64,000 nucleotides of DNA. Origin: Aurantiochytrium sp. KH105 (lineage: Eukaryota > Sar > Bigyra > Thraustochytrida > Thraustochytriidae). Of the stretch, positions 8,239 through 47,655 are shown piece by piece. The stretch is taken from assembly GCA_003116975.1 (NCBI GenBank), contig BGKB01000020.1:558001-622000 (forward strand), read 5' to 3'. Position 1 is the first letter of the stretch, and every line of letters begins with the position of its first letter. The notes beneath the pieces were generated by a model. The model searched no databases. It was not told where the DNA came from and saw only the letters and a program-made list of their open reading frames with translations. The position numbers were made by a program, and so were the translations under genes.

Positions 8239-8785
8239 TTGACAAATACTTTTACCGAGCCTCGAGTCTGTGCTGATGTATGCAAAGTCGGGATCGTGCG
8301 TGCAACAAACGCCACGATTAGGCAATTAAAACCTGCTTGTATACCCCCCTCCAAAATATCACGCGGCTTAGGTAACTTGTCCGCCTTACCACCATCTTTG
8401 TTTACTAGATGGAACGTGGTCAGGTATGAATACTATTATCATGAGACTCGTAGCATTTTAGATGTGACTTTAGTATGGGTACAAAGTTCCAATCTACTCC
8501 CCTTCAGATCGAGTCGTGAAAAAAAATGTGCTCGCGTGTTTCGCACGCCCGCGAGCCTCTGCTTAGCGTCCAATTGATTTTTTAGTCCGCGAGCCTCTGC
8601 TTAGCCTCTAATAGTTTTTTTTGATAGAGGCGCAATAGGGGGACAAGAGGCAGTGAATAAATGCTTGCTTGTTTTTGTGGAAAGAGGAGGATTCGGGGTG
8701 AGCATGGGAGCAAGTCACTGTCAGTCTCGTCTCACTCTAGCTCACCACAACTCGCCTCGTCTCGTCGCTTGCTTCTTGCGCATTC
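8239..8785. repeat. Direct repeat copy A
   Basis: Shares an ordered series of matching blocks with 9416-9972, offset by about 1,177 bases. Anchors present in both are the 12-mer GAGTCTGTGCTG (8264 and 9441), ATGGAACGTGGTCAG, CTTTAGTATGGG, a GAGCCTCTGCTTAGCGTCC block that is itself doubled, and GCGCAATAGGGGGA. Gaps and substitutions are frequent, so the duplication is not recent. No protein family is recognised. Confidence 0.7.
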
Positions 8786-11570: not shown

Positions 11571-12580
11571 GTGCATTGTGCATGAGGTCTTACTGTTGGT
11601 GCGAGAACCCCGCCTCATGATGCAAACCGTGGCTTCGGGGCCCGGTGATGGAGCGCTTGGTTGCGTAATGCTTATATAGATGACTGATGAGATTGCCTTC
11701 GTGTAAGGAATAGGGCAATCATGATGGAGACGGACCGCAAGAATCGCGAAAAAGAACAATCGATATGCCCAAGCTCGTGCACACATTCATGGGAAAGATG
11801 CGCGCACGAGCGAAAGGTACGGCGTCTAGGGCAATAAAGACGCGCTCAGGCTGGAATTATTGAGCACAGTATGTTTTGGGTTTAGTTGAGTGAGCTTTTG
11901 ACCCTGATTCAAAATACGAGATTGAGCTTGTAGCTTTGCTCCTTCCGATGTCGCCTACAATGTTCTTTATAATACGCAATGTTGCTGCACATCGAGAAGG
12001 CACTAAAGGAGTGAACTTGCAATGTCCTGCGCAGAACCGCTATAGTTGCCAAGTCGACGCCGCTGGCACCCCGGTTCCATACACATTTGAGAGGAACGAC
12101 GTCGGCGATGGGCTGACCGAACTCCATTATCGACACCAGCTTGGTGTGGCAGGCGCGCGACTGACGTTGGGTCGGTTTGATCATGCGCGCTTCGCACAGA
12201 GAAAACCGCTTACGCTCCATCCTGTGCTAGCGCAGGGTGGAGATAGAAGTCTATAAGATATCCGACATTTCTTCTGAGTCATCACCGAAGTTGTCGTTCA
12301 TTGTATTTCGAGTTTACCAGCAAGACTGCGGAGTGCAGATGAGCATGACGAGCTTGTCACAGTCTCGCCTACATTACATTATCACCTCGAATGTTTGGTG
12401 CCTCACGTGATCTGCAATGATTCCTTGCGATGTACCGAACAGAAGTAACACTGGAAAATGGGAAGGTTCTCTTCGGAATTTTCAACGGCAGCATGACCCC
12501 AAAACTTATCACCTAGGACTAGGACCTAGCATTCCGTAAAGTTGGCGATGTTCGCGCTGTGCTTGCTAGTTTCTCATCTC

Positions 12581-13322
12581 TTCTTCTGCACGATGCCAGA
12601 AAGAATCCGCGAAAATTCCGCAGTCAGCTACGGGACCAAAAAAGTGAAGGTCGCGAGTGTCCAAGTGCCGTCTGCGAGTGGGGCGAACTACGCTTGTACG
12701 GGAAGAAAGGTTCCTCCTTCTCGTAGCTGGTAGCGTAGTCCGTAGCTCCCCTATTGCCAACAAGTTTGGGTGTTTTGGGCATAACTTGCAGGCGGCGTGA
12801 CTCACGCTGCAGAGACCTGTTTCTCCAGCCTATAAAGACATTTCTTCTTCTGCACGATGCTGGAAAGCACCCGCGAAAATTCCGCAGTCAGCTACGGGAT
12901 CAAGAAAGTGAAGGTCGTGAGTGTCGAAGTGCCGTTTGCGAGTGTGGCGCACAACGCTCATACGGATGGAGAGCTCCCTCCTTCTCGCAGCTAGTAACGT
13001 AGTCCGTAGCTCCCCTGTTGCCAACAAGTTTGGGGGTTTTCGGCGTAGTTTGCAGATAGCGAGGCTCACGCGGCCTAAATCTCAAGCCCATGAAGGTATC
13101 TCTTTTTCAATGTAATGCAAACACGATCCACAGTGGTTTTGCCGTTGCTCGCACAGCAAGGAATAAGAGAGAGTGCGAGTGTTGGAGTGCCGTCTGCTAG
13201 CGAGGCGAGCCTTGATGTATTGTAGGCAGCAGGAGGAAAGCTTCCTTCTATCCATTTTGACCCTCTGAATTTAAGCTTGTGGGGCTTTTCTCGTAGATGA
13301 CGTGGCTCGTGCTGCATGGACT
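12581..13322. repeat. Tandem repeat, about 2.8 copies of a 264-bp unit
   Basis: TTCTTCTGCACGATGC at 12581 recurs at 12845, giving a 264-bp period. The two copies match over most of their length: CGCGAAAATTCCGCAGTCAG, GAAGTGCCG-type blocks, GTAGTCCGTAGCTCCCC, GCCAACAAGTTTGGG. A third, much more diverged copy follows to about 13322 (GAGTGCCGTCTGC, TTGTGGGG, GTAGATGACGTGGCTCGTGC). Open frames across it are short and inconsistent between copies, so it looks non-coding. Confidence 0.75.
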
Positions 13323-22055: not shown

Positions 22056-25000
22056 ATGCACTCAACAAGACGAAAGCGACACAGTAGCCTCGGTGCCGAG
22101 AGTAGTACGCGACGTCGTAGCTCGGTGCAAACTTTCATCGGGCCCGCCAAACCTATGAAGCGAGGCCGAGATCAACTTGGAGACGGACAAGCAAATAGCA
22201 CGCTGCAGGGATGCGGGAGAAGCTCAATGCTTGGCATCTCTACGCCCTACGTGCAAGAAGTGCAGAAATGTACAAATCGCCGCGCAAGCAAACCCTACTT
22301 TGGGGGTGTCCGAGGGAGAGCGTACATGACGCCAGAGAACATATCAGAAAGCCCCCGCATTGACGAGCGAGAGTGTGTCCCTTCAGTAAAGACACGCCCA
22401 CCTCGAGCTCGAGAAGGTGACCTACCGATGCAGTACCATCTCACATGTGCTGATGTCGATAACTTTGTTCAAGCGGAGCCCGAGACGCATGCAAACGTGT
22501 CTTTCACAGACTGGGTGGACCGGCTCGGGTCCTACAAGGCTGCGTCGCGCCAGCTTCGCGCCAATGAGGAAGCTCGCGTCGAACATCGCGAGTGGCTGGC
22601 ACGTAAAACCGAGTATGACCTTTACATGGATCGCGAGGCCGCTCGAGAGCGCGAGCGCAGATGGACCCGAGGGCCGGCCCAGCTGCCCCGGACTGTCGCC
22701 GAGGCTGCCCGCATGCAGCGACTCAAAAAGCTCGAGCGCCTCGAATTACGCATGTCGGATCGCCACGACGTTGATATTCTCGTACGACAAGCACCATTCA
22801 CAGAACGACTCGACCTGCAAGGCAAGCTGCATGACAATAGCATTGAGCTCTTCGAGAGTTTGATTGAGGACGAACGCGTCCTCCGAGTCACCGAAGCGCG
22901 ATTTGCTCGCAATGGACTCCGCTCCATCCCGAATGGCCTGCACTTACACTTTAGGCAGTTGCGCGTCTTGGATCTCTCGCAGAATCGTCTCGAGAAACTC
23001 CCTTCTGATATTGCATTCCTAAGGAGCCTCCAAGAGCTCAACATTCAGTACAACAAGCTGGAGGAAATCCCGACGACAGTTTTTGAGCTACCGGCGCTCC
23101 AAGTACTCGTTGCTGGCGGCAACACTTTTCTTGGATTGCACCACCGCATTGCCCAAGCCTCCGAGCTTTGCAGCATTTCGCTCGATAACAACAACATTGT
23201 GACGCTTCCACTGGCGCTTTCAGAGCTCGCCAAATGCGAGCGCCTGAATCTCAATCACAATGGGCTTGAGACCCTCGCGCTCTTCCCGCCAGCTGCATAC
23301 TCGTGCATGACAGCCAAGGAGCTCCAAGAGGATATGAAACATTGGAAACGGGTCGAGCTGCCGGCCAAGGGCGAATCTGGGTATATTCATGAACTCACGG
23401 GTGAGGGCAGACGCACCCTCGTGCCCCTTCACGACCAGCTCTCTCTCGACACAGATCCCGATCTCGCGGACTTTGACGTCGATGCCGAACAACTTGTTGC
23501 GGACTTTATTGCTGGAGTGAATACAACTGCAAAAGAGAAGAACATCAAAGCAATGGCATCTGCTGCAGAAACAAATGTTACTCGCCTCGATCTGAGCAAA
23601 CTAAATGACAAGACGAGGGCCGGAAAGCTTCGCGTGAAGCAACGCGTTGCACTTGCACGTGCTGGCAAGCTCGAGTGGCGCTACTGGATCAATGATAAGA
23701 CGGGCGCCACTGAATTCGGCAACATTGTGACGCGAGAAGTTGTTCGACAGGGCATACCGCCGGCGCTGGATCGATGGAATACCCTTCACGGACTGCGCGA
23801 ACTCTTGGTGAACTGTAATCATCTCACTGAGCTTCCTGCAAGTCTAAGCAAACTACCTCGTCTCGAGCGTCTCGAGGCCTCGCAAAATCGCATCGTCTTT
23901 GTACCAGAGGAACTCTCAAACCTAGCATGCTTGCGCGTGCTAGCACTGCGAGAGAACCGCATCGAGAAGCTTCCAAACGAGCTGGGCAAGCTCAAGGCCT
24001 TGGAGCGTCTTGAGCTGTCGGGAAACCGCATTATTTGTCTTCCTGGATCAGTACGCTTTTGTCGCGCCTTGCGAGTGCTAGACCTATCTTCCAACTGCCT
24101 CGAAGAGGTTTGCGCCGATCTTGGGGCCTTGACCGAGCTTGAGGTCCTTGGACTCGCAGGAAACCCCACGCTGCAGCGTCCTAAACCTGAAACGGTGCGT
24201 CGAGGTCTCGCTGCAGTCCTCTGGGACTGCCGGAATCGAGAAAAGCTGCGTGCTCTCGGTCCACCTCCGCCACAAGCACGACGCGAAAATGTTGGCGTTG
24301 CAGGAGAGCATTTCGTTGTGGAAGGCATGTACCACAAAACGGTAGCACAAGCGATTGAGCGTGCGCGACAAACTGGCATTCTCAAAATGCACTTTTTCGG
24401 TCTTCGAGCCCTTCCCGACCAGGTCTTTAGTCTTCGTCGCCTTCGCGAGCTACGCATCGCGGGCCACAAGTCTATCACTGTCATTCCAAAGCACGTGATG
24501 CGCCTGCGCAGTCTTGAGGTGTTAAGTTTCACGGCCAATGCTTTGCGCGAGATCCCGCACTCTCTTGCATTCTGGAGCGAGCTCAAGGAACTCAAAGAAA
24601 TTGACCTCTGCGACAATGAAATCGGAAGTCTCCCCGCAGCGTTATCGGTACTCCCAAAGCTCAAGCTCTTATCGCTGAGTGGGAATCGCATTACTCAACT
24701 TGCTGGCAAGTGCTTCACAGGACCGATTGCAGATTCACTTGAACGCCTTCACGTGAACAGCAACCGTCTAGAGGAGCTTCCGCCCGAAATCAATTCGCTT
24801 TGGCGGCTACGTGTGCTGCAACTTACGTACAACGAATTGAAGGAGCTCCCTTTTGACCTGAGCGGTCTGAAAGGGCTCGAACGGCTGCACCTGAGCCGCA
24901 ATTGCCTGCACGAACTACCCGACTCGCTCGGTCAGCTTGCACGGCTGAGAGTCCTGCAGCTCGCGTGCAATAAAATCGAGCATTTGCAGCCTGCTCTTTT

Positions 25001-27059
25001 CGTGGGACCACTCTGTCACGTCCTCGAAACACTGCATGTGCAGAGCAATGCGTTGCGCGAACTTCCACCTGCACTGTGCGAGCTGCGAGCTCTGCGGGAA
25101 ATTGTCATGGATGGAAACCCGCTCGAGTCCCCTCCGGTCTCGTTTCGAGGAAACGCATGGACTGCACCGCAGGTTCTCGAGTACTGCGAGGAGCGACAAC
25201 GACGACGCACGCTGTTCACCGATTTGCTTCAAGCGGCTATGTCCAAAAACAACCACTTTGCACTCGACGAGGCCTTGCTCATGCCACGTTGCAAGGGTGC
25301 GATCGTAGACAAGCATTCATATCTTCACGCTGGTGACGATCTTGTCGTGAACGATCTGGTCGATCGCTTCATGAACGGCGCATTTTACGACCACGAAATC
25401 TCCGCTTTTGACACGATCGAACGACTTTCAGATCTCTTTGAGTTACGTCGGAATGCCAAACTTCGCATCGTTCTCGACGACCTGCTCAAGCTGGTTGAGA
25501 TTGGCAAAGAGTATGGGCTCATTTCTCCAGTAGACTTTACAAGCGAACTGAGGATTGGATTTGGTCGTGGGAACGAAGCTGTGAGAACATATGCGGTGCG
25601 TCTTTCTGCGCTCTATCGCGAGATTGCAGAGGACTATGAAGATAGTGAAGCCGAAAATCAGGCGGCTGACGACGATGACGAGGTGAACTCGCTGTCATCG
25701 CTCGAGTCTTATGGAAATGAGAACAAGTCTACGGATGACGAAGACTCAGACGATGATGATGACGACAACCTCTCCGAGGCAGAGCGTGCGCCAAATCTCA
25801 TTGAGGCAGTTGGACTTTTACGCAGAGAACATCAGTTCGTCTTTGAACATAGTCGTGAGCTGGTCGACCTGGCCCTCTCTACGTACCGCGGCCCGTATGG
25901 CCAGATCGCCTGGATGCGCGCACCTGTGTCGTTTGATAGCGATGGCGGCAGACTCGAGTTTCCGGAGTACATGGAAATTGTAGGCTCCGATGAAAAGACT
26001 TCCGCGTTGCGTGAAGATAAAAGGGCTGAACCGTTCAATAAGCCAGTCTCGCACGTGGGCGCTCATAAAAAGAGAGAACGGTCAAAATCGAGGCAACCGC
26101 GCGCGTTTTTCGAAATTGCACGAAACAAATTGGCCAGGCTTTGGCGGCCTAAATCGCCGAACGGTCCGATTGTGGTCGACCGAGAATTCACCTTTCCAGC
26201 TTCCACAAAGGAAGTGCATGCGGACGTGGTCGTGTTCTCCCAGCTGTTCTACACGCTCGAGGAGGCAGCACGCAGAGAGCGTGAGGAAGCGGAAATTGCA
26301 AAGGTGGTAAAATGCGCAACAAGGACGTTTGAGGCGTGGTGCGAGCTCCCAGAAGGACGGGAACGACTTTCGAGCGTGGCTGTGGATCGAATTGGGCGCG
26401 TTGCAGAGGTTCTGGAGAACCTGAAGAACGACTACGAAGATGCCCGCATGGCCTTGGACGTTGCTCGCGAGCACCTCCAAGAAATCAATCGGCGCGTCGA
26501 TATGTTTGAAAATGGCGAACCAGAATACCTGCACCACATAAAGAGCAGGCGGAAGGGCGATAAGCTCATTCGCGAGGCGGAGGCAGAGGTCGAGGAATGT
26601 ACGGGTCCACTTGAGCGTTTGGAAAAATTGCTCAATCGGGCAAAGGGTCGCAAAAAGCTTCGATTGAAGCAGGTCATTATCGCAACGCGTGAGGAAGTAA
26701 TGGTCATTGTGGACGAGAGAGCCAAGGTGTTGCAAACGCATTCGTATCGAATGCGTGCGCTCACGGAAGGCTTGCGCAGGCCGTGGGATGGAGACAACGG
26801 ACGGGATTTTGAAATCTGGAAGCTCGCCCGCAAGAGAGCCATGGCCGACCAGGGCATTGAGAATGCAGCGGACTTTTTGAGTGACGAAGATACCGAGGAG
26901 CTTCCGCCCAATGACCTCGTGCAAGTCATGGGTGACGGATTTGCCTATGACGCTTACATTGATATGCTTGACCAGCTCGGAGACGACTCCTTTCTGGCGG
27001 ACATGGAATCCGACGGAGCTGCATCTGATGCCAAGGATATCAATCAAGAAAATTCGTAA
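22056..27059 (+). CDS. Large leucine-rich repeat protein with acidic and coiled-coil C-terminus
   Basis: A 1,667-residue intronless protein. Three blocks of typical (Shoc2/SDS22-like, LxxLPxxLxxLxxLxxLxLxxN) LRRs lie at about residues 280-410, 575-705 and 780-1040. The first two blocks are separated by a segment carrying EWRYWINDKTGATEF. After the LRRs comes a helical region, an Asp/Glu-rich stretch (about 1190-1250, with DDEDSDDDDDD), a basic patch (about 1330-1370, HKKRERSKSR) and a helical coiled-coil region (about 1420-1600). LRR proteins of this kind usually act as protein-binding scaffolds; no catalytic domain is visible. The LRR class differs from that of the gene at 37.5 kb, so the two are not simple paralogues. 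Function unknown. Confidence 0.85.
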   Translation: MHSTRRKRHSSLGAESSTRRRSSVQTFIGPAKPMKRGRDQLGDGQANSTLQGCGRSSMLGISTPYVQEVQKCTNRRASKPYFGGVRGRAYMTPENISESPRIDERECVPSVKTRPPRAREGDLPMQYHLTCADVDNFVQAEPETHANVSFTDWVDRLGSYKAASRQLRANEEARVEHREWLARKTEYDLYMDREAARERERRWTRGPAQLPRTVAEAARMQRLKKLERLELRMSDRHDVDILVRQAPFTERLDLQGKLHDNSIELFESLIEDERVLRVTEARFARNGLRSIPNGLHLHFRQLRVLDLSQNRLEKLPSDIAFLRSLQELNIQYNKLEEIPTTVFELPALQVLVAGGNTFLGLHHRIAQASELCSISLDNNNIVTLPLALSELAKCERLNLNHNGLETLALFPPAAYSCMTAKELQEDMKHWKRVELPAKGESGYIHELTGEGRRTLVPLHDQLSLDTDPDLADFDVDAEQLVADFIAGVNTTAKEKNIKAMASAAETNVTRLDLSKLNDKTRAGKLRVKQRVALARAGKLEWRYWINDKTGATEFGNIVTREVVRQGIPPALDRWNTLHGLRELLVNCNHLTELPASLSKLPRLERLEASQNRIVFVPEELSNLACLRVLALRENRIEKLPNELGKLKALERLELSGNRIICLPGSVRFCRALRVLDLSSNCLEEVCADLGALTELEVLGLAGNPTLQRPKPETVRRGLAAVLWDCRNREKLRALGPPPPQARRENVGVAGEHFVVEGMYHKTVAQAIERARQTGILKMHFFGLRALPDQVFSLRRLRELRIAGHKSITVIPKHVMRLRSLEVLSFTANALREIPHSLAFWSELKELKEIDLCDNEIGSLPAALSVLPKLKLLSLSGNRITQLAGKCFTGPIADSLERLHVNSNRLEELPPEINSLWRLRVLQLTYNELKELPFDLSGLKGLERLHLSRNCLHELPDSLGQLARLRVLQLACNKIEHLQPALFVGPLCHVLETLHVQSNALRELPPALCELRALREIVMDGNPLESPPVSFRGNAWTAPQVLEYCEERQRRRTLFTDLLQAAMSKNNHFALDEALLMPRCKGAIVDKHSYLHAGDDLVVNDLVDRFMNGAFYDHEISAFDTIERLSDLFELRRNAKLRIVLDDLLKLVEIGKEYGLISPVDFTSELRIGFGRGNEAVRTYAVRLSALYREIAEDYEDSEAENQAADDDDEVNSLSSLESYGNENKSTDDEDSDDDDDDNLSEAERAPNLIEAVGLLRREHQFVFEHSRELVDLALSTYRGPYGQIAWMRAPVSFDSDGGRLEFPEYMEIVGSDEKTSALREDKRAEPFNKPVSHVGAHKKRERSKSRQPRAFFEIARNKLARLWRPKSPNGPIVVDREFTFPASTKEVHADVVVFSQLFYTLEEAARREREEAEIAKVVKCATRTFEAWCELPEGRERLSSVAVDRIGRVAEVLENLKNDYEDARMALDVAREHLQEINRRVDMFENGEPEYLHHIKSRRKGDKLIREAEAEVEECTGPLERLEKLLNRAKGRKKLRLKQVIIATREEVMVIVDERAKVLQTHSYRMRALTEGLRRPWDGDNGRDFEIWKLARKRAMADQGIENAADFLSDEDTEELPPNDLVQVMGDGFAYDAYIDMLDQLGDDSFLADMESDGAASDAKDINQENS

Positions 27060-31683: not shown

Positions 31684-33936
31684 ATGGCGAGCGCGGGCGA
31701 AAATGGCGAGGATGAGGCCCGCAAGGTGGTGCTTGGGGTGATTGGCGGGAGCGGGCTGCTGAAAAGCGCCATGTTCGCGCCGGAGACCATGAAGGAGGAG
31801 GTGGTGGAGACCGAGGCCGGCTTTGGCAAGATCAAGCTGATGCGCAAGGAGCTCAACGAGGAGCTCGACATTGTCTTTGCGCAGAGACACGCTTGCGACG
31901 TCGAAAAGGATTACTCCCCCCCGCACTTGGTCAACTTTCGAGGCCTCCTTTCGGCCATGAAGCAAGTCGGTGTCAACGCCATTCTGGCCGTCTGCTCCGT
32001 AGGATCGATGCGCCATCACATTGGCATGGGTGCGCTCGTGCTTCCGGACGACTTTTTCTGTCCCCAGCATGTCCTCACCACCTTTGACGATGCGCGAGGC
32101 CACAACGTGCCTGGCTTCAACGATGCCCTGCGCACCGAGATCCTCACGGCTCTCTTTCGCAGCGGGGAGCGCCCGCTCGATGGCGGCGTCTATGTCAACT
32201 CGAATGGCCCGCGCTTCGAGACCAAGGCCGAGATCCGCTTCATGTCGCAGTGCGGTGAAATCATTGGCATGACCGGGGCCCACGAGGCGACGCTTGCAAA
32301 GGAACTTGGCATACCCTACGCTATGCTCGCCATTGTCGACAACATGGCCAACGGCATTGGGCCGCAGCTCACGCTCGAGGAGTTCTTCGCTGTCCAGCAC
32401 AAGAATCAGCCCAAAATCGAGAACGCCGTCCACGTTGTCCTCAATCACTTCAAGGCCTACCCCGAGGTGCTTCTCAGCCTCGACGGCGACGGCGCAGATT
32501 CTTCCGCAGACGACAAGGCTCCGTCGACCCCGGCGTCTCCCAAGGAGGTCTGCGATGAGGTAGTGCACGCCAAGAGCGTCGTCACCGTCGATGCCGAGGA
32601 GCGCGTTTTGGAGAACCACGCCGTGGCCATCAAGGACGGCAAGATTGTCGACATTTTGCCGTCTCACGATGCGGACGTCAAGTACGGCGCCTTTTCTTCG
32701 ACCACGACCAAGGTCGTGCGCCTTCCAGACAGCGTGCTCATGCCGGGTCTCATCAACGCGCACACACATACCCCGATGGTTTTCATGCGCGGCTTTTCCG
32801 ACGACTTGCCCCTTGACAAGTGGCTTACGGAGAAGATTTGGCCCACAGAGGTGCGCACCGTTTCCAAGGACTTTGTGCGCGACGGCTCACGCCTTGCGTG
32901 CGCAGAGTTTATTCGTGGTGGCGTGACCTGCTTTTCGGACATGTACTTTTTCCCAGAGTCCACCGCGGAAATCATTGAGGAGACGGGTATTCGTGGATTT
33001 CCTGGCAGCATCGTTATCGGCTTCCCGTCGAATTATGCTCAGGGACCGGCAGAGTACCTGGAGAAGGGCCGCAAGATGATTGAGGACTACAGCGGACGCA
33101 CGGACCGTCTCAAGTTCTGCGTTGCGCCGCACAGCACCTACGCGGTGTCCGAGGAGGACCTGATTAAGGCGCACAAGATGGCGCGCGAGTTTAACCTGCC
33201 CTTCCACACGCATCTGCACGAGACGGAGCGTGAGGTCGATGACAGCGAGCGTGGTGACCGGTCGTCTTCCTTTTGCCATCAGTGCGACAAGAAGTGCCGC
33301 CCTCTGCGCAACCTTTTGGACAATGGTATTGTCGATGAACACTTTGTGGCGGCCCACATGGTTCACATCAAGGACGACGAGATTGAGGAATACGCAGCTG
33401 CTGGGGCTCATGTCGTGCACTGCCCGACTTCAAACCTCAAGCTGGCGAGCGGCTTTTGCCCTGTGCAAAAGATTGTGGACGCCGGTATCAATGTTGCGAT
33501 TGGCACGGACGGCGCCTCGTCAAACAATTCGCTCGACATGTTTCAGGAGATGAAGCTGGCCGCTATCATGGCCAAGGGCGTCGCCAAGGAACCCTGCGCT
33601 ATTCCTGCCACCCAGGCGCTTCGCATGGCCACAATTAACGGCGCCAAGGCCCTCGGCATCGCCGACCAGGTGGGATCGCTCGAGGTCGGCAAGCAGGCCG
33701 ACATGATCGCTGTCGACCTTTCAGACTTGTCTTGCCTGCCTACCTATCACGTGGTGTCTCATTTGGTGTACGCGTGCAACCGTCACCAAGTCAGTGACGT
33801 CTGGGTTCAAGGCAAGTGTCTCATGCGCAGTCGTCAGCTGCTCACGATCGACGCTGGCAAGCTTCGCCGCGTTGCGGAAAAGTGGCAGGCCATTATCGCC
33901 GAGGTTGACAGCAATCACGACGGCACGTACCAGTAA
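31684..33936 (+). CDS. Fused methylthio-nucleoside phosphorylase and MTA/SAH deaminase
   Basis: A 750-residue two-enzyme protein. Residues ~14-265 are a PNP/MTAP-family phosphorylase: VIGGSGLLKS, AQRHACD (phosphate-site Arg-His), CSVGSM, SNGPRFETKAEI and MTGAHEATLAKELGIPYAMLAIVDN. Residues ~295-745 are an amidohydrolase of the MTA/SAH deaminase group, with metal ligands at HTHTP (His360, His362), FHTHLHETE and GTDGAS (Asp609), and the family's HTHxPMxxxRG opening. Family roles: the deaminase turns 5'-methylthioadenosine (or S-adenosylhomocysteine) into the inosine form; the phosphorylase releases the base and methylthioribose-1-phosphate for methionine salvage. Human MTAP uses Asp220 and Asp222 to bind adenine; by alignment this protein has Asn220 and Ala222, so a 6-oxopurine substrate is inferred. 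The fusion lies in one exon with no internal stop. Cytosolic; no targeting signal. Confidence 0.9.
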   Translation: MASAGENGEDEARKVVLGVIGGSGLLKSAMFAPETMKEEVVETEAGFGKIKLMRKELNEELDIVFAQRHACDVEKDYSPPHLVNFRGLLSAMKQVGVNAILAVCSVGSMRHHIGMGALVLPDDFFCPQHVLTTFDDARGHNVPGFNDALRTEILTALFRSGERPLDGGVYVNSNGPRFETKAEIRFMSQCGEIIGMTGAHEATLAKELGIPYAMLAIVDNMANGIGPQLTLEEFFAVQHKNQPKIENAVHVVLNHFKAYPEVLLSLDGDGADSSADDKAPSTPASPKEVCDEVVHAKSVVTVDAEERVLENHAVAIKDGKIVDILPSHDADVKYGAFSSTTTKVVRLPDSVLMPGLINAHTHTPMVFMRGFSDDLPLDKWLTEKIWPTEVRTVSKDFVRDGSRLACAEFIRGGVTCFSDMYFFPESTAEIIEETGIRGFPGSIVIGFPSNYAQGPAEYLEKGRKMIEDYSGRTDRLKFCVAPHSTYAVSEEDLIKAHKMAREFNLPFHTHLHETEREVDDSERGDRSSSFCHQCDKKCRPLRNLLDNGIVDEHFVAAHMVHIKDDEIEEYAAAGAHVVHCPTSNLKLASGFCPVQKIVDAGINVAIGTDGASSNNSLDMFQEMKLAAIMAKGVAKEPCAIPATQALRMATINGAKALGIADQVGSLEVGKQADMIAVDLSDLSCLPTYHVVSHLVYACNRHQVSDVWVQGKCLMRSRQLLTIDAGKLRRVAEKWQAIIAEVDSNHDGTYQ

Positions 33937-37547: not shown

Positions 37548-40500
37548 ATGTTTACCTCTAGCGAAAACGTGATTGCCGACACACTTCGAGCAATGTCAGA
37601 TGGGGAAATCTCGCTGGGGTAAGTCAAACGAGCAAATACGAATTCACAATAGGGCCAACTCTCACGCGCGCTGCAATGCATTGTGTTTCTTCTGACCCGA
37701 ATACTGTCATGTCCTTGCCATCTCGCTCTTCCGATCACATCGCCCATGAAATGCACAATCGCAGTCTTTTCGAGGAAAACGTCGACGATGTTGGCGCGAC
37801 AGCGCTGGCAAATGCGCTCAAGGAGAACACCTCGCTGCAGGAGCTTGAGTAAGTTGTGCGAGGGTGGTGATGAAGGTTTGGGAAGAAGGAAGACGACTGA
37901 CCAGCTCGCGATGGAACAAATCACCCAACCCGATACATGATGCTATGATCGTTCTTTTCTTCCTTCGATCATGCTGCCATGCATGGTTTCTGTTCCCCTC
38001 TCTATCCATGAAATGCACAATCGCAGTCTTAGGAACAACCAATTTGGCGACGATGGCGTGATAGCACTGGCGAATGCGCTCAAGGAGAACACGTCGCTAC
38101 AGAAGCTTGAGTAAGAAGCGTGATGGTGAGGCAAAGGAACCTTGCACGGAACAAAGACGACTGACTGGCTCGCAATGGTACAAATCATCCCAACCCGATA
38201 CATGATGATATGACTCTTCTTCTCTTCCTTCGATCATGCTGCCATGAATGGTTTCCGATTCCCCGATGTGTCCATGAAATGCACAATCGCAGCCTTGGGA
38301 ACAACCAAGTTGGCGGTGATGGCGCGGCAGCACTAGCGAATTCGCTCAAGGAAAACGCGTTGCTGCAGATGCTTTAGTAAGTACCGTGAGTGTGAGGCAA
38401 AGAATGCTTGCAAAGAACGAAGACGACTGACCAGCTCCGATGGCACGAATCATCCAACCCGATACATGATGCTATTATTATTCTTCTCTGCCTTCGATCA
38501 TGCTGCCATGCGTGGTTTCTCATTCCCTATCTGTCCATGAAATGCAAAATCGCAGTCTCCAATTGAATGAAATTGGTGATGATGGTGCCACAGCACTGGC
38601 GAATGCGCTCAAGGAGAACAAGTCGCTGCAGGAAATTGAGTAAGTTGCTCAAGGAGAAGTAAAGGAAGCTTGCAAAGAACGAAGACGACTGACCAGCTCG
38701 CAATGGTACAAACCATCCAATCCGATGCATGATGCTATGATTGTTCTTCTCTTCTTTCGATCATGATGCCGTGCATGGGTTCCAATTCCCCACTGTGTCC
38801 ATGAAATGCACAATCGCAGTCTTCGGCACAACCAAGTTGGCAGTGATGGCGCGACAGCGCTGGCGAATGCGCTCAAGGAAAACGCGTCGCTGCAGAGGCT
38901 CGAGTAGGTAACGCGAGGGTGGCAATAAAGTTTGCAAAGAACGAAGACGACTGACCAGCTCCCAATGGAACATATCATCCAACCCGACACATGATGCTAT
39001 GATCGTTCTTCTCTTCCTTCGATCATGCTGACATGCATGGTTTCCGATTTCCCACTGTGTCCATGAATTGCACAATCGCAGTCTTCGGTTGAACAAAATT
39101 CGTGATACTGGCGCGACAGCACTGGCGAATGCCCTCAAGGAGAACAAGTCGCTGCAGGAGCTTGAGTAAGTTGCTCAAGGGGAAGTGAAGGAAGCTTGCA
39201 AAGAACGAAGACGACTGACCAGCTTGCAATGGTACAAACCATCCAATCCGATACATGATGCTATAATTGTTCTTCTCTTTCTTCGATCATGCTGACATGT
39301 GTGGTGTCCGATTCCCCACTGTGTCCATTAAATGCACAATCGCAGTATTGAGTACAATCACGTTGGCGATAACGGCGCGACCGCGCTGGCAAATTCGCTC
39401 AAGGAAAACGCGTCGCTGCAGATGCTTTAGTGAGTACCGTGAGAGTGAGGCAAAGAATGCTTGCAAAGAACGAAGACGACTGACTAGCTCGTAATGGTTC
39501 AAATCATCCAACCCGATACATGATGCTATGTTTGTTCTCTCTTTCGTCGATCATGCTGCCATGCCCGGTTTAACGTTTTCACTTTTCACATAAAATGCAC
39601 AATCGCAGTCTCAAAGGGAACAGAGTTGGCGATGATGGCACGACAGCACTAGCGAATGCGCTCAAGGTGAACGCGTCGCTGCATTTGCTTCGGTAAGTTG
39701 CTCAAGGCGAAGCAAAGAAAGCTTGCAAAGAACAAAGACAACTGACCAGCTCGCAATGGTACAAATCACTCTAACCCGATACATGATGCTATGATTGTTC
39801 TTTTCTTCCTTCGATCATGCTCCCATGAATGTTTTCTGTTCCCCACTTTGCTCAAAAAATGCACAATCGCAGTCTTCAGTTCAACCGAGTTGGCGTTGAT
39901 GGCGCAACAGCGCTGGCGAATGCGCTCAAGGAAAACACGTCGCTGAAGGAGCTCAAGTAAGTAGCGTGAGGGTGAAGAATTCTCGCAAAGAAAGAAAACG
40001 ACTGACCAGCTCGCAATGATACAATTCAATTAACCTGATACATGATGCTGTGATTGTTCTTCACTTCCTTCGATCATGCTGCCATGCATATTATACGTTT
40101 CCACTTTGCCAATAAAATGCACAATCGCAGTCTGGGGGCCAACCAAGTTGGCGATGATGGCGCGACATTACTGGCGTTTGCGCTTTATGAGAACAAGTCG
40201 CTGCAGGAACTTACGTGAGCTGATCAAAGGAAAGCAAAGGAAGCTTGCAGAGAATGAAGACGACTGACCAGCTCGCAATGGAACTAATTACCCAATCCGA
40301 TGCATGATGCTATGATGATTATTCTCTTTCTTCGATCATGCTGCTATACATGTTTGCATTCTTGACTTTGCCAATAAAATGCACAATCACAGTCTTTGGA
40401 GCAACCAAATTGGTTATAACGGCGCCACAGCGCTTGCGTGTGCGCTCAAGGAGAACACCTCGCTGCAGGTGCTTATGTAAGTAGCGTGATGGTGCGGCAA

Positions 40501-43500
40501 AGAAAACTCTTGAAGAATGAAAATGGCTGACCAGCTGGCATTGTTACAAATCATCCGACCCGGTTCATGATGCCACGATTGATTTTCTCTATCTTCGATC
40601 ATGCTGCCACGCATATTATACGTTCTCACTTTGCCAATGAAATGTTCAATCGCAGTGTTCGGGACAACCAAGTTGGCGATAATGGCGCGGCAGCACTAGC
40701 GATTGCGCTCAAGGTGAACGCGTCGCTGCAGCTGCTTAAGTAAGTTGCTTCAGGGGAAGCAAAGAAAATTTGCAAAGAACGAAGACGACTGACCAGCTCG
40801 GAATGGTACATATCATCCAACCCGACACATGATTCTATGATTGTTCTTCTCTTCCTTCGATCATGCTGCCATGCATGCTTTTACGTTTCACTTTGCCGAT
40901 GAAATGCACAATCGCAGTGTTACGGCCAATATAATTGGCGATGATGGCGCGACAGCGCTGGCGAATGCGCTAAAGAAGAACAAGTCGCTGCAGTCGCTGA
41001 AGTAAGTTGCACGGGGGAAAAGCAAAGAAAGCTTGCAATAAACGAAGACGACTGACCAGCTCGCAATGGTACAAATCATCCAACACGATACATGATGCTA
41101 AAATTGTTCGTCTCTTTCTTCGAACATGCTGCCATGCATGCTTTTACGTTTTCAATTTGCCTATAAAATGCACAATCGCAGTCTTGGGGCCAACCTAATT
41201 GGCGATGATGGCGCGACAGAACTGGCGAATGCGCTAAAGAAGAACAAGTCGCTGCAGTCGCTGAAGTAAGTTGCACGGGGGAAAAGCAAAGAAAGCTTGC
41301 AATGAACGAACACGACTGACCAGCTCGCAATGGTACAAATCATCCAACACGATACATGATGCTATAATTGTCCGTCTCTTTCTTTGATCATGCTGCCATG
41401 CATGCTTTTACGTTTTCACGTTGCCTATAAAATGCACAATCGCAGTCTTGGGGCCAACCTAATTGGCGATGATGGCGCGACAGAACTAGCGAATGCGCTA
41501 AAGGAGAACAAGTCGCTGCAGTCGCTGCAGTAAGTTGCACGGGGGAAAAGCAAAGAAAGCTTGCAATGAACGAAGACGACTGACCAGCTCGCAATTGTAC
41601 AAATCATCCAACACGATACACGATGCTATGATTCTTCTTCTCTTTCTTCGATCATGGTGCAATGCACGCTTTTACGTTTTCGCTTTGCACATGAAAATCA
41701 ACGCAGTCTTACTTGGAACCAAATTGGCAACAATGGCGCGACAGCACTGGCGAATGCGCTAAAGGAGAACACGTCGCTGCAGAAGCTTACGTAAGTTGGG
41801 AGTGAGGGAAGAAAAACCGCATTTGGGTGGCGAGGAGAACTAAACAGAACGCAAACAATTCCTTACGGCAATCTCTCTGTTCGTCGCAACTCATGTGTGC
41901 GATGGCACTATTTTCAATCGAGAGCAGTCTTCATGGGAACAATGTCAGCAAAGACAGGTTGGGCGAAATAATTGAAGTGCTCAGGAAAAACAGGTATGTG
42001 TAGTTGCCAGATGAAAGAGAAGGTCAGAAAACTAATGATGAACTCTACTTAATGCTTCGTCAAGCCACGCTTCATCCTTTTCTCATTTCAGAGACGAAAG
42101 GCTTCGTAGAGAAGAGCACGCACAGATTGTTGAAGAGCGCAAAAGAATTGTTGAAGAGCACGCAAAGTTTGTTGAAGAGCGCGCAAAGAAGCAGCAAGCC
42201 GAAATTGAGGCTTTGAAAGAATTGGAGTACGTCGAGTTGAGATTGTCGCGTAAGTACGGTCGGAGTTAACTAACGTGTTGCAAACTTTACCAACGCACCA
42301 CCGTCGACATCGGTGCTTCGCTTTGGGTCTCATGTTTTTTCTTGGATGAATATAGTCGATCCGGTGATGGTATTGGCCCACAAGGCGCCAAGGAAATGAC
42401 GGAGAGCCTCGCGAAATACACACAGCTTCATTCTTTAAAGTAAGTTTTGGGAAACTATGGAGAAGAACGAAGACAGATTTGTTGTTAGTTTTTGAAAAAC
42501 ATATCAGACTTACGCAGCGAGACGTGGTTACTTTTCTCTCGAACGTGCGCTACTTTATAACCACCCTTACAGCCTTTCCAAGAATGGTATCGGCGATAGT
42601 GGTGCTGAGGCCGTGGCATGCGCGCTTGCCGAGCACAAGTCGCTGCAGAACTTGAAGTATGTGGTGAGAACGGTCAAAAGCGTTTTGCAAAAGACCAAGA
42701 AAGACTGACCTGGATTTCTGTGGTACTCCGTTCTTGCCGAGGAAATTGCAATTGATTCAATGAACGCAGTCTTGGGGCTGACGAGATAGGTCCCATTGGC
42801 GCCAAGGCTGTAGCGGATATGCTCGAGAAGAACGAGTCCCTGTTGACGCTGAAGTAGGTTATCATGAGAGGCGAAAAAGTGCGCGAATTTCTGATAACTG
42901 ACGATGAGGCAACTCATGGCACTGTACTTTGCAACTTGCTGCTCGTCGTCACACAAATACAGTCTTGGCTGGAACCGTATCAGTGACGGTGGCGCCGCGG
43001 CAATGGCGAAATCGCTCGCCGCGAACACAACGCTGTGTTCTCTCGAGTACGTAGAAACAGAGCGTTGTAATTGAGCAATGATCTAACCACCAGGCTTCCT
43101 CGCGGTGCTGTCGTATTTTGATCTTTCTTTACGAACCAACGCAGTCTTCAGAAGAACGGGATCAGCGCGGATGGCGCCAAGGAGATTGCGGAGGCTTTCG
43201 TGAAGTCTCAAATGCTGGAGTTGCTCAAGTAAGAACTACAGTATCGAAAATGAGGCGTGCATAATTCGAAGAAGGCTGACATGTATGGCAAAACGACTTC
43301 CAAATATGCGCACGCTGGTGGTGTTTTTTCAAATGGCAATCGCAGTCTGGGATGGAATGCTATTGGTGATGATGGCGCTGTGTATGTGGCCAAAGCGCTC
43401 GAGGAGAATAAGTCGCTGTTGTTCCTAGAGTAAGTGAACCCAAAACGATCGGGTGCACGTTGAAGGTGAGGAGACTCACACTTTCCACTTTTCCTGCAAA

Positions 43501-46500
43501 ATCTTGATGTGGTGCGCAGTATTGCAAGGAACAAGATTGGCAGCGTAGGCGCTGCTGCTGTGGCGGGCGCACTACTGAAGAACAAGTCGCTGCACACTCT
43601 GAAGTAAGTATTGGCGAGAGAACATTGCGCAAGAAAGGAGTCGCATGGACTAATAAAGACGCGATCACGACTCTTTGTGGCTTTTCCTCGCGCCTTCATG
43701 AATCCGTATCAAAATCACGCAGGTTTCGTAGCAACGACATCACGGAGGATGGCGCCGAACAGCTAGCAAATGCGCTTGCCAAGAGCGAATCACTACAGGC
43801 GCTAGAGTAAGTTCTGTTGTCCAAACATGGCGGTACTCAAGAAGCGAGTATTCCTAACGATAGCTCGATATTCGTCGTAATATGATCTGGTGTGGAATTT
43901 CGCGGGCTCTTTATGTCGATCAAAACACTCCTCATCTTCATAGTCTCGCAAAGAACAGAGTCGGTCTGGCTGGCGCAAGATCTCTCGCGGGCGCTCTCAC
44001 GGAGAACACGACGCTGCACTTTCTGGAGTAAGTTTTTATGATCATGGCAATAAAAGGAGCAAGATGAGCTTAGCTGACGAGCATGCTTATTAATTATTCC
44101 TTTCCAACCCGCGCTTGGCGTCGCGATTCACAGCATATCTGATAACAACATCGGAGATGATGGTGCTTCTGCGCTGGCAGGCGCACTCGCTCGGATCATG
44201 TCCCTCGTGACGCTACAGTACGTTGGCATTGCGGGGTTAGGGTGTGAGCGTTGTATACAATTGATCAGCACTTGCTCAGCTTTTTGACGATTTTACAAAC
44301 CCCATATCGCGTACAGTCTTCAAAACAATGCGATTGGTGACGTCGGCGCGAATGAGATTGCGAAAGCGCTCGCGGCGAACAATTCTCTGCAGTCTCTAAA
44401 GTACGTTGGATTCGGAAAGGCGCTTGCATCAGAGGCAAATCGTAACTTACGAAGACGCCGTCGAAAAACCGTTCAATTTTCTGTGATCTTGCCATCCTGA
44501 TTCTTTGCAAATGACTGCAGTCTCTCTGAGAACCTTATCGGTCCAAATGGCGCTGGAACCATGGCTGGTGCGCTCGTGAAGAACAGTACACTCGAGGAGC
44601 TTGAGTACGTTCTTGCCGGGATTCAAGAATGATCGAAGACACGATGAATTCCTGACGAACGCGAACCCTATCACGCCATGCTCGGCGTTGCCATATTTCA
44701 TCCTTTACAGCCTTGGAGACAACAATCTTGAGGATGAAGGCGCCAAAAAGCTGGCAAAGGCACTTGAGCAGAACAAGTCATCTCTTCAGTCCCTCGAGTA
44801 CGTTTGCCGCCAACACATCGGACCCAGAGTTTTTGGAACATGCAATTGCTGACTATTTTACGAGAAAACAGTCTCACTGGATCTCGGGTCGGAAACGGAG
44901 GCGTTGAAGCCCTTGCCGTGGCGCTCGAGAGCAACGACATCTTGCAAGAGCTAGCGTAAGTTCGTCGCACACATTTCGCCTAGAGGACGTCAATATCATG
45001 CAAGGACGACTCACGTGATTGATGAACAGTCTTGGCCATGTTCCCCATGCATCTCCCGATATTCTTAAACGTATTGGCTCTCGCCTTAAGCTTGTCAAGG
45101 ATGAGCTAAATGAGCTCAGCGAAACAGCTGCTCAGGCGCTTAAGACAGATCAAAAGGTACGCTGGGGGCGCGCCAAGCTCATGGTTGTGGGTAAGGCAGC
45201 CGCAGGCAAGACGTCGACGATCCGCACGCTCCTGGGCCAGCCATTTGTACCCGAACATATCTCTACGATTGGAATAGATCTGATGCTCATGCACACGCGA
45301 GACTGGAAAGAGCGAAAGGACACTGGCGATGCCGATCTTGGCGAACAATTCGCAAAGCACAAGTATCGGAACATAGCGAAGCATGACGAGCTGGATCAGT
45401 CTGAGGCTCAGTCATCGAAAGACGCAGCGCGTAGCCTTTCCAAAGCGCCACGCGCTGCTCCACCTGCCATTTCAGCCAGCAGTGCTTCCGCTGCGCGTCC
45501 ACCTCCGCCGCAGTCTCCATCAGTCCAGTTTGACGAGGAGGTAATTGCGAAAGCTGTGAGCACCCCGCTTCGCATTCGTGTCAAGGAGCAAGCCGGAAAG
45601 GAGAAAGAAGAGATCAGCTTTACGATATGGGACTACGGTGGTCAGGAGGTCTTTTACGCGCTACATCACCTGTTCCTGACCCAGTATGGCGTCTATGTTG
45701 TGGTTTTTGACATGCGCGAGATGCTGGGTAAGGAGCGCTTCAAAGAAAAGCTTGATGAGGAGGATCTTGCGAAGCTCGCCTCGCAAGACGACGCGATTCA
45801 GACGCTTCGTTTCTGGCTCGACTCTATTCGATTGCACGCGTCAGGTGTCGAGGTTGCGCTGGTTGGGACATTCCTGGACCAGGTTCCAGAGCTTGATCAG
45901 CATCATGAAATCCAGGAGATCCTTGAGAGAAAGATCTTTCGCGAACTGAAGGGCGACCCCAAGATTCAGAGGAGTATTTGGCAGGGGGAGTTCCTTCAAT
46001 TTTTCCCCATTAACAATCAAGATCGCGAGGACGTAGACGGACGCGTTGCGCATCTCAAGGATCAGCTGACACGATCCGTGGCCGACAAGGCGTTTGTGAA
46101 GAAGAAGGTTCCTCTTCGTTGGTCTTACTGCCTGGACCAATTGCTCCAACAAAGCGATCAATACATGCAGTTTGACGATGTTGAGGCGCTTGCTGTGACG
46201 AAATGTTTCGTTGCCAAGAAGGACGTCAGGAAGATGCTCGAGTATCTGCATGAGCTCGGCGTGGTGTTGTACTTTTCCAAGAATGAGGCTCTGTGCAAAG
46301 TCGTTGTAATTCAACCGCAGTGGCTATTGAAAAATCTGTCACGCGTCATTTGCGATCCAAGCGCAAAGCACATGAGAAGTCACATGAACAAGTTGCGATC
46401 GGGAGCCGGAGAACGCACGGCCCTTCCTGCCCATCTTGATTCTGCACTTTATCAGTGGAGGGATAACGCTGTTGCCAGTCGTGCTTTGCTGGAGTTTTTG

Positions 46501-47655
46501 TGGGAAGGCAACCCTGTTGACTTTCTCGTATCATTGATGGAGTCGACATTGCTGGCATGTCCGAGTCCTTGGGTTAGCGATGACGCTGGCAAGAAGGACA
46601 CAGTTTTGGTGCCGAGTCTTTTGCCCGCTGCATCGGAGCAAGACAAGAAGGATGGACGGAGATGGGTCGGTGACTCTGCACTTGCCTACGTCGACTTCGA
46701 GCTTTTGCCAAAGGGCTTCTTCCAGCGTCTCGTGGCTCTTCTTTTCCAGGAATTTCAGGGTGTGGCGACCGTGGGTGAGAAGGTTTTCGCGGACGTGGCG
46801 AGAGTTGACTTTCACGGCATGTCGTGCCTCATGGAGGTATCGCAACGACGGATCACGTTTCGCTTCGGCAATGCTCGACGAGGTCGCCCGCTCGCATCGC
46901 TTCTCGCATTGTTGAGCAAGGAACTGAATGAAATCGACGAAACGTTCATGATGGGCAAACTGGGACCAAAGTTATATGTCAGCTCCGACGGAACCGACAA
47001 CGACAAGTTTTGTGCTCTTGCGGAATCCCTCGCAAACCCTCTGGAGGGCAACACGATTCAAACGCGATCGTCATGTCAACCACTTGAAGATTTTGCATCG
47101 TTTGTGAATGGGACCTCTCAGGCTCAAATGCTCAGAGAGTCTCAAGCTCGAGGGAACTCAGAGTCAGTCGCAGGCGCTGAATACCAGTATGATGCTTTTC
47201 TTTCTCATGCGTGGGGTCCCGCAAATACATCACATGACAAGGTAAAGGTTGTTGAACGAAAGCTGGCGGGACTTGGCATTCGGTGTTGGATTGATGCAAA
47301 TGACATTGGAGCAGACATTTTTTGGTCCATAGCGGATGGAATGGAAAAGTCCCGGACCACCGTCATCTTTGTGACGCGCGAATACATGGAAAAGGTGAAC
47401 ACAAAGCTTTCGACAGATGAATTTTGCCGCATGGAGTTCTACTACGCGATGAACCGTCAAAAACCTGTACGCGTGATTCCATGCGTGCTTGACAAGGATA
47501 TGGCGGACTCGAGCGAATGGAAGGGGCCATTTCTTTTTCGTTGGAGTGGAAATCCACTTTTCGTCCCAATGTATAGCGAGGTCGAACCTACTGATGCGGA
47601 GATTGCCGAACTTGCACAGAGGATCAAAGTCACGATTTCTCAGAACCAACTGTAG
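37548..47655 (+). CDS. LRR-Roc-COR-TIR receptor-like protein, 34 exons
   Basis: Spliced gene, model built by eye: exon 1 is 37548-37618, exons 2-33 are listed under the three following entries, exon 34 is 45030-47655. All 33 introns are GT-AG and phase 2; the joined frame is open for 1,806 residues. Order of parts: 16 ribonuclease-inhibitor-type LRRs (28 residues each), a shorter LRR, a coiled coil, 14 more LRRs, then Roc GTPase (P-loop GKAAAGKT at 986-993, DYGGQ switch II at 1133-1137, TFLD in the G4 position), COR (about 1290-1630) and a C-terminal TIR (about 1650-1790, starting YQYDAFLSHAWG). Glu1734 in CRMEFYYAM aligns with the catalytic glutamate of NAD-cleaving TIR domains. A Pro/Ser/Ala-rich insert (about 1065-1115) lies between P-loop and switch II. 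No signal peptide or membrane segment, so cytosolic. By family analogy, an LRR sensor coupled through a Roco GTPase to a TIR output. The exact ligand is unknown. Confidence 0.88.
37765..41790 (+). repeat. Block 1: 16 homogenised exon-intron LRR modules, period about 262 bp
   Basis: Exons 2-17, each exactly 84 nt, start at 37765, 38027, 38293, 38556, 38820, 39082, 39346, 39609, 39873, 40131, 40393, 40656, 40918, 41182, 41446 and 41707. Each starts one base before a CTT-type Leu codon and ends two bases into the next codon. Introns between them are 174-182 nt and share sequence throughout: AAGACGACTGACCAGCTCGC, AATCATCC, CGATACATGATGCTATGATT, TTCGATCATGCTGCCATG and AAATGCACAATCGCAG at the acceptor. 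Two intron flavours occur before the acceptor, CCGATTCCCCA-like in the early modules and TTTTACGTTTTCACTTTGCC-like in the later ones, with 39540-39600 mixed. Exon-intron units at 40.92-41.53 kb are nearly identical to each other. Confidence 0.92.
41928..42226 (+). other. Exons 18 and 19: truncated LRR and coiled-coil exon
   Basis: Exon 18 is 41928-41993 (66 nt) and encodes a shortened LRR ending in VLRKN. Exon 19 is 42092-42226 (135 nt) and encodes a charged helix with the recurring IVEE(R/H)(K/A)-type unit (QIVEERKRIVEEHAKFVEER). It ends in KEL plus the usual GA half-codon before GTACGT. Both keep phase 2 at each end. They separate the two LRR blocks as a rigid spacer or dimerisation helix. 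A donor a little further on (42250) exists but would break the phase pattern. Confidence 0.8.
42356..44955 (+). repeat. Block 2: 14 diverged LRR exons with unrelated introns
   Basis: Exons 20-33 start at 42356, 42573, 42770, 42963, 43145, 43346, 43520, 43723, 43944, 44134, 44317, 44521, 44711 and 44872. All are 84 nt except the one at 44711, which is 87 nt with one extra Ser. Introns are 74-137 nt and do not resemble each other or block 1 beyond splice signals. The encoded repeats keep LxxNxIGxxGAxxLAxALxxNxSLxxL but differ along their whole length. Same phase and exon size as block 1 show a common origin; the divergence shows greater age. Confidence 0.9.

What the first reader, a model, noticed from the sequence alone, without database searches (positions are those of the whole stretch)
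37548..47655. One LRR per exon: a 34-exon LRR-Roc-COR-TIR gene with every intron in phase 2
Thirty LRR exons, 29 of exactly 84 nt and one of 87, plus two spacer exons, all begin and end in phase 2. The last large exon carries Roc, COR and TIR domains. Joined exons total 5,421 nt with no stop before the end, which is strong internal support for a model made by eye. LRR-Roc-COR proteins and TIR receptors are known; I know of no described protist gene in which LRR modules sit in single symmetric exons ahead of Roc-COR-TIR. Such exons can be gained, lost or skipped without breaking the frame.
Basis: partly seen in the sequence, partly recalled or inferred. Interest (0 to 1): 0.95.

Follow-up and report, generated by a model that had tools for sequence, protein, structure and literature searches.

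The report
LRR-ROCO-TIR gene, one repeat per exon
A protist gene builds a probable immune-type receptor from thirty repeat exons of almost uniform length, much like genes already known in brown algae, Tetrahymena and vertebrates, and its newest repeats differ most where such a protein would be expected to touch its target.

Summary
The gene structure is supported. A 34-exon model (37548-47655, +) has 30 LRR exons (29 of 84 nt, one of 87), 33 of 33 introns GT-AG and phase 2, and a 5,421-nt frame ending in Roc, COR and TIR. The claim that no such protist gene is described does not hold: brown algal ROCO genes have one LRR per 72-nt phase-2 exon ahead of ROC-COR, with exon shuffling, alternative splicing and positive selection (PMC11378527); Tetrahymena has tens of thousands of 90-bp phase-2 LRR exons (PMC6564038); most human NOD/NLRC genes have one 28-residue LRR per exon (PMC6642158). 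What differs here: 84-nt ribonuclease-inhibitor-type modules in a ROCO gene, a C-terminal TIR, and two LRR arrays of different age split by a cap and a coiled-coil-like exon. In the young array four beta-strand-face codons show pN 0.615, pS 0.379, against intron divergence 0.202; the other codons are conserved. Best reading: a cytosolic candidate immune receptor whose binding face grew by tandem exon duplication under diversifying selection. No transcript data; organism unidentified; exon 19/20 is the weakest junction.

The parts
37548..37618 (+). exon 1 (71 nt): start codon and N-terminal half repeat; in-frame stop 10 codons upstream
37765..41790 (+). array 1: LRR exons 2-17, 16 exons of 84 nt, introns 2-16 of 174-182 nt; young, a 264-bp tandem exon-intron unit
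41928..41993 (+). exon 18 (66 nt): truncated LRR, read as C-terminal cap of array 1
   Evidence: cap role inferred by eye
42092..42226 (+). exon 19 (135 nt): charged, heptad-like coiled-coil spacer; read on without splicing it stops at 42267
   Evidence: coiled coil inferred from sequence, no coil predictor run
42356..44955 (+). array 2: LRR exons 20-33, 13 of 84 nt and exon 32 of 87 nt; old, introns 20-33 hardly alignable
45030..47655 (+). exon 34 (2,626 nt): end of array 2, Roc, COR, TIR, stop codon
45166..45990 (+). Roc GTPase, approximate limits: P-loop GKAAAGKTS at 45190-45216, switch II WDYGGQE around 45628-45648; about 90 extra residues between them relative to the closest solved Roc
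46111..46620 (+). COR-A domain (PF16095)
46621..47150 (+). expected COR-B region; only E = 0.21 to PF25497 (11.8 bits, cut-off 27)
47197..47499 (+). TIR_2 domain; candidate catalytic glutamate E1734 at 47434-47436 in F-C-R-M-E-F
   Evidence: catalytic role inferred from motif spacing
45022..45024 (+). in-frame ATG three codons upstream of the exon 34 reading frame, possible start of a stand-alone Roc-COR-TIR protein

Best explanation
The gene encodes a cytosolic LRR-Roc-COR-TIR protein of 1,806 residues. Two ribonuclease-inhibitor-type LRR solenoids (16 and 14 exon-encoded repeats) would bind a ligand on their concave beta face; the Roc-COR module would act as the GTP-dependent, dimerising switch known for ROCO proteins; and the C-terminal TIR would give the output, by NAD+ cleavage or by TIR-TIR assembly. 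Because each repeat sits in its own phase-2 exon, unequal crossing over within introns can add or remove whole repeats without shifting the frame. Array 1 grew recently in this way, and selection then diversified its ligand-facing codons. Shown by computation: gene model, domains, tandem unit, excess of amino-acid change at the concave codons. Inferred: splicing, cytosolic immune role, GTP switch, TIR output, unequal crossing over. Not tested: exon skipping.
For: Model, phases and frame. Pfam LRR_6 2.7e-124, Roc 3.8e-16, COR-A 2.2e-14, TIR_2 2.3e-12 on the joined product. LRRs closest to ribonuclease inhibitors and NLRPs among solved structures; Roc closest to solved ROCO and LRRK2 chains. 264-bp tandem unit at 37742-41798; closest introns are often neighbours, e.g. 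14/15 at 4.4% difference; intron distance rises with spacing (r 0.32, 33 of 5,000 permutations). In array 1 the concave codons 2, 3, 26 and 28, which I equate with the positively selected sites of brown algal ROCO LRRs, have pN 0.615 and pS 0.379; the other 24 codons pN 0.152 and pS 0.282; 1 of 20,475 four-codon sets reaches that pN; jackknife over 16 units gives pN/pS 1.50-2.02. Intron p-distance 0.202; 0 of 100,000 draws of ten intron columns reach the mean of the five most variable strand codons, and the best five of 28 pseudo-codons in 2,000 intron blocks reach at most 0.491 against 0.653.
Against: No RNA evidence. The five-codon set was picked; the four-codon set rests on my own mapping of the brown algal sites. 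The selection test compares repeats inside one gene, so gene conversion and the shared history of the units are not modelled. Array 2 shows no excess at the same sites (pN 0.592, pS 0.727, near saturation). Intron divergence (0.202) is below silent-site divergence (pS 0.293), so introns are not a clean neutral ruler. Adding strand position 25 lowers the contrast (pN 0.496, pS 0.304). No membership of an immune pathway, ligand or expression was tested. COR-B is weak. Single-sequence models of the TIR and of Roc-COR-TIR failed (mean pLDDT 35.0 and 35.8).
Confidence: 0.6

Rival explanations
1. Two genes or two alternative transcripts: exons 1-19 form an LRR-coiled-coil protein, and a later start (exon 20 onward, or exon 34 alone) makes the LRR-Roc-COR-TIR or a bare Roc-COR-TIR protein.
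For: Exon 19 read on gives 14 more residues and a stop at 42267; the GTAAGT donor at 42250 breaks the frame; an in-frame ATG lies three codons before exon 34; exons 23, 25, 28 and 33 have in-frame ATGs upstream. Arrays 1 and 2 differ sharply in age.
Against: The GTACGT donor used for exon 19 is also the donor of other introns in array 2 and keeps phase 2; its end (ALKEL-GA) copies the end of an LRR exon; upstream of exon 20 there is no in-frame ATG in the 29 codons after the stop at 42267.
Confidence: 0.2
2. A housekeeping or cytoskeletal ROCO: the repeated array is a by-product of neutral tandem duplication, and the variable codons reflect relaxed constraint on a solvent face rather than diversifying selection.
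For: Tandem repeats expand neutrally; array 2 shows no pN excess; ROCO roles in chemotaxis and cytoskeleton are reported for Dictyostelium (PMC11378527, section 15).
Against: Relaxed constraint should bring pN up to pS or the intron level, not above both: 0.615 against 0.379 and 0.202. Convex and helix surface codons of the same repeats stay conserved.
Confidence: 0.2
3. A decaying pseudogene or an assembly artefact of a tandem repeat.
For: 264-bp tandem repeats can be collapsed or expanded in assembly.
Against: No stop or frameshift in 1,806 codons, intact splice sites at 33 of 33 introns, strong constraint on the framework codons (pN 0.152, pS 0.282).
Confidence: 0.05

Closest known systems
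Brown algal LRR-ROC-COR (ROCO) genes, groups 1 and 2 (Teng et al. 2024, PMC11378527; first described by Zambounis et al. 2012, known here only through Teng)
   Same: Each LRR in its own phase-2 exon ahead of ROC-COR; up to 49 repeats; variability on the concave face; proposed immune receptors.
   Different: 72-nt exons, LxxLxxLxxLxLxxNxL repeats; only LRR-ROC-COR, no TIR reported; by my reading of the stated site numbers the exon border falls after the NxL, not inside the beta strand.
Human NOD and NLRC genes (PMC6642158)
   Same: Most have one 28-residue RI-type LRR per exon, i.e. 84 nt; exon border at a fixed position inside the beta sheet; frame-preserving.
   Different: NACHT ATPase instead of Roc-COR; no TIR; NACHT lies before the LRRs. 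Intron phase not given in what I read.
Tetrahymena 90-bp-exon LRR genes (PMC6564038)
   Same: A protist; exact-length LRR exons, more than 96% flanked by phase-2 introns, young arrays with similar introns and old ones without; unequal crossing over proposed.
   Different: 90 bp; mostly LRR-only proteins, some fused to kinases; Ka/Ks of most such genes indicates purifying selection; no ROCO mentioned in the passages seen.
Chondrus crispus TPR-ROCO-TIR (named in PMC11378527, section 10)
   Same: ROCO with a C-terminal TIR in a non-animal eukaryote.
   Different: TPR instead of LRR; exon structure not given there.
Prokaryotic LRR-Roc-COR proteins such as the Chlorobium tepidum Roco (PMC6337361; solved chains, species recalled)
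   Same: LRR-Roc-COR order, Roc and COR-A similarity.
   Different: No introns, no TIR in the passages seen.

Membership tests
ROCO (Roc-COR) GTPases | Roc domain with P-loop and switch II | tested here: met
   PF08477 6.1e-17; GKAAAGKTS and WDYGGQE; best solved relatives are ROCO proteins and LRRK2
ROCO (Roc-COR) GTPases | COR-A directly after Roc | tested here: met
   PF16095 7.3e-15, 55.6 bits, cut-off 35.3
ROCO (Roc-COR) GTPases | COR-B dimerisation half | tested here: inconclusive
   PF25497 E = 0.21, 11.8 bits, cut-off 27, and only when the piece was scanned alone
ROCO (Roc-COR) GTPases | GTP-dependent monomer-dimer cycle | not testable with these tools
   needs protein
Brown algal exon-shuffling ROCO genes | one LRR per phase-2 exon ahead of ROC | tested here: met
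   30 LRR exons, all phase 2
Brown algal exon-shuffling ROCO genes | 72-bp exons | tested here: not met
   29 of 30 are 84 nt, one is 87
Brown algal exon-shuffling ROCO genes | LRR-ROC-COR as the only domain order | tested here: not met
   TIR_2 follows COR, 3.7e-12
Brown algal exon-shuffling ROCO genes | positive selection on concave LRR sites | tested here: met
   array 1 only, by pairwise pN/pS and introns, not by PAML site models; array 2 does not show it
Brown algal exon-shuffling ROCO genes | alternative splicing of LRR exons | not testable with these tools
   no RNA data
NLR receptors | NACHT or NB-ARC ATPase domain | tested here: not met
   no such Pfam hit on the full product up to E 0.001 or on exon 34 up to E 1
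NLR receptors | RI-type LRRs, one 28-residue repeat per exon as in most human NOD/NLRC genes | tested here: met
   LRR_6 repeats, 84-nt exons with the border between x28 and L1 of the strand
TIR NAD+ hydrolases | TIR fold with catalytic glutamate | tested here: inconclusive
   TIR_2 met; E1734 fits the W-xxx-E spacing of solved TIRs by eye, but the printed AbTIR alignment does not place it there; the structure model failed

The most novel reading that the evidence does not exclude
A protist has independently built the vertebrate-NLRC-like exon module (one 84-nt RI-type LRR, border inside the beta strand) on a GTPase-TIR receptor chassis, and uses it as an evolving recognition array: an old, fixed LRR array next to the GTPase and a young, amplifying, positively diversifying array at the N terminus, possibly also varied by exon skipping.
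Probability: 0.3. Interest if true: 0.75.

Novelty: new variant of a known kind. Interest (0 to 1): 0.5.

Why it matters
If transcripts confirm it, this would be one more lineage, besides brown algae, Tetrahymena and vertebrates, in which LRRs are kept in single symmetric exons, and it combines the exon module of most vertebrate NOD/NLRC genes with a ROCO switch and a TIR output. The two arrays of different age in one gene, with alignable introns in one, give a direct test bench for how such arrays grow and how selection acts on the binding face.

Tried and rejected
Relatives in viral contigs (3 pattern matches, none a relative) and prokaryotic genome contigs (4 pattern matches, none a relative): with a single query these scans find close relatives only, so they say nothing about distant ones. 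The window's own genome is not held, so other copies of the module, the organism and its other ROCO genes could not be examined. No tRNA or Rfam match in the window. AlphaFold without an alignment failed for the TIR and for Roc-COR-TIR (mean pLDDT 35.0 and 35.8), so no fold search was run.

Conserved RNA structure in array 1 introns: RNAalifold gives -8.91 kcal/mol with a covariation term of -0.05 and 2 of 22 pairs with two-sided changes; not supported. Invariant blocks (columns 51-60, 91-100, 121-130) remain unexplained. Adenine-directed hypermutation: the hypervariable columns carry several bases and not an adenine-only pattern; a reverse transcriptase was not specifically sought. Another exon array elsewhere in the window: no blastn or tblastn match to the array or the protein outside the gene; the 264-bp repeat at 12575-13071 shares only its period. 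PADLOC gave one hit in the TIR region, PDC-S66, 5.5e-09, taken as generic TIR similarity; NCBIfam gave only a sub-threshold small_GTP hit.

Papers: PMC11378527 - outline, abstract, passages and sections 10, 11, 15. PMC6642158 - passages, section 5 part 1, section 6. PMC6564038 - passages, outline and abstract. PMC6337361 - passages. Zambounis et al. 2012 is not held and is cited through Teng. All other papers were seen only in search listings.
Full report
Observation. A mechanical scan for AG | 81-90 nt | GT intervals open in phase 2 with LRR-like ends gave 30 candidates between 37.5 and 45.1 kb; two overlapping ones at 42146 were dropped as not LRR. The rest of the window gave 3 on the + strand and 2 on the - strand, none LRR-like by eye. 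Two further LRR exons (20 and 22) were added by eye. In 200 Markov-1 shuffles LRR-like 84-nt exons appear 0.045 times on average, at most once. Every one of the 33 introns, if retained, meets an in-frame stop.

Weak points of the model. The first version used the GTAAGT donor of exon 19 at 42250 and lost the frame (45 stops); the GTACGT donor at 42227 restores it. Exon 19 read on stops at 42267; exon 20 has no in-frame ATG in the 29 codons after that stop; an in-frame ATG lies three codons before the frame of exon 34. A break between exons 19 and 20, or a stand-alone Roc-COR-TIR transcript, is therefore not excluded.

Domains. The joined product matches LRR_6 (2.7e-124), Roc (3.8e-16), COR-A (2.2e-14) and TIR_2 (2.3e-12). 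COR-B reaches only E 0.21 when scanned alone. The Roc is closest to solved ROCO and LRRK2 chains; between the P-loop stretch and switch II it has about 90 residues more than chain 3dpu_A. The TIR is closest, weakly, to AbTIR (E 0.0033) and Cat1 (E 0.15). F-C-R-M-E1734 has the spacing of the W-xxx-E motif of catalytic TIRs (motif recalled), but the printed AbTIR alignment does not align that residue, so NADase activity is a guess. A 173-residue piece of array 2 is closest to a ribonuclease inhibitor-like protein (2.6e-40), ribonuclease inhibitors and NLRPs (best 60 of 64 shown).

Two arrays of different age. Array 1 (16 exons) has exon identity 76.0% and intron identity 79.8% (introns 2-16) on a 264-bp unit; array 2 has exon identity 52.8% (13 of 14 exons, the 87-nt one left out) and intron identity 42.7% (introns 20-33) against 36.6% for one shuffled set. 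Array 1 introns are 137-182 nt, array 2 introns 74-137 nt. In array 1 framework-codon distances follow intron distances (r 0.50, 0 of 5,000 permutations reach it); concave-codon distances follow them weakly (r 0.24, 350 of 5,000).

Selection. In array 1 the most variable codons are 3, 2, 26, 28 and 5, the exposed positions of the strand motif LxxLxLxxNx. Codons 2, 3, 26 and 28 have pN 0.615 and pS 0.379; the other 24 have pN 0.152 and pS 0.282; 1 of 20,475 four-codon sets reaches the first value; jackknife pN/pS 1.50-2.02. Five-codon version: pN 0.586, pS 0.337, others 0.137 and 0.286; intron p-distance 0.202; 0 of 100,000 draws of ten intron columns reach the codon-position 1-2 mean of 0.653, and the best five of 28 pseudo-codons in 2,000 intron blocks reach at most 0.491. 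Against: array 2 shows no excess (pN 0.592, pS 0.727), introns are less diverged than silent sites (0.202 against 0.293), and the test treats repeats of one gene as if they were independent sequences.

Surroundings. Seventeen other ORFs of the window were scanned; 10 have Pfam matches, among them IF-2B, FAD oxidoreductase, amidohydrolase, kinesin and SNF2 ORFs that cover 95% or more of the named domain without interruption, and a 1,667-residue LRR_8 ORF at 22056-27059 with no intron within it. So this gene's intron density is unusual in its neighbourhood, and LRRs nearby are not all split by exon. The organism was not identified; eukaryotic chromosomal DNA is inferred from these genes and introns.

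Comparison. Teng et al. 2024 report brown algal ROCO genes in which each LRR is a 72-bp phase-2 exon, with shuffling, alternative splicing and four positively selected concave sites (14, 16, 18, 19), and state LRR-ROC-COR as the only arrangement there; they also name a TPR-ROCO-TIR in Chondrus and ROCO genes in Schizochytrium aggregatum. Mapping those site numbers on their stated consensus, my inference without seeing the figure, puts their exon border after NxL, whereas here it lies inside the strand, between x28 and L1. Human NLRs have the border at a fixed place within the beta sheet, and most NOD and NLRC genes have one 28-residue LRR per exon. Tetrahymena has nearly 50,000 (elsewhere in the paper about 72,000) 90-bp LRR exons, more than 96% with phase-2 introns. 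The module here is thus nearer in length and border to NLRC genes than to brown algal ROCOs; whether by descent or convergence cannot be told from one gene. I file it as a ROCO protein, not as an NLR (no NACHT or NB-ARC found) and not as a brown algal shuffling ROCO (72 nt and domain order not met).

Verdict. A sound observation with an overstated novelty claim. The structure is a new variant of a known kind; the diversified young array and the TIR output make an immune-receptor role the most likely reading (0.6), all steps beyond sequence being inferred.

Noticed in passing
22056-27059 (+): 1,667-residue LRR_8-type ORF without an intron, on the same strand about 10 kb upstream; NCBIfam hits to LRR effectors are all far below their cut-offs, so generic LRR similarity.
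   Followed up: partly
31684-33936 (+): One 750-residue ORF joins a PNP_UDP_1 phosphorylase domain to an amidohydrolase domain, a possible fused nucleoside enzyme.
   Followed up: no
37849-41706 (+), introns 2-16: Three internal intron blocks (alignment columns 51-60, 91-100, 121-130) are nearly invariant across 15 introns, and introns diverge less than silent sites; no covarying RNA structure found.
   Followed up: partly
12575-13071: A two-copy tandem repeat of period 264, the same period as array 1 but without detectable sequence similarity to it.
   Followed up: partly
8549-8621 and 9732-9804: The same 38-bp repeat pair occurs twice, about 1.2 kb apart, in a lower-GC stretch without long ORFs.
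   Followed up: no
about 45290-45560 (+): About 90 residues, partly proline- and serine-rich, inserted in Roc between P-loop and switch II relative to chain 3dpu_A.
   Followed up: no
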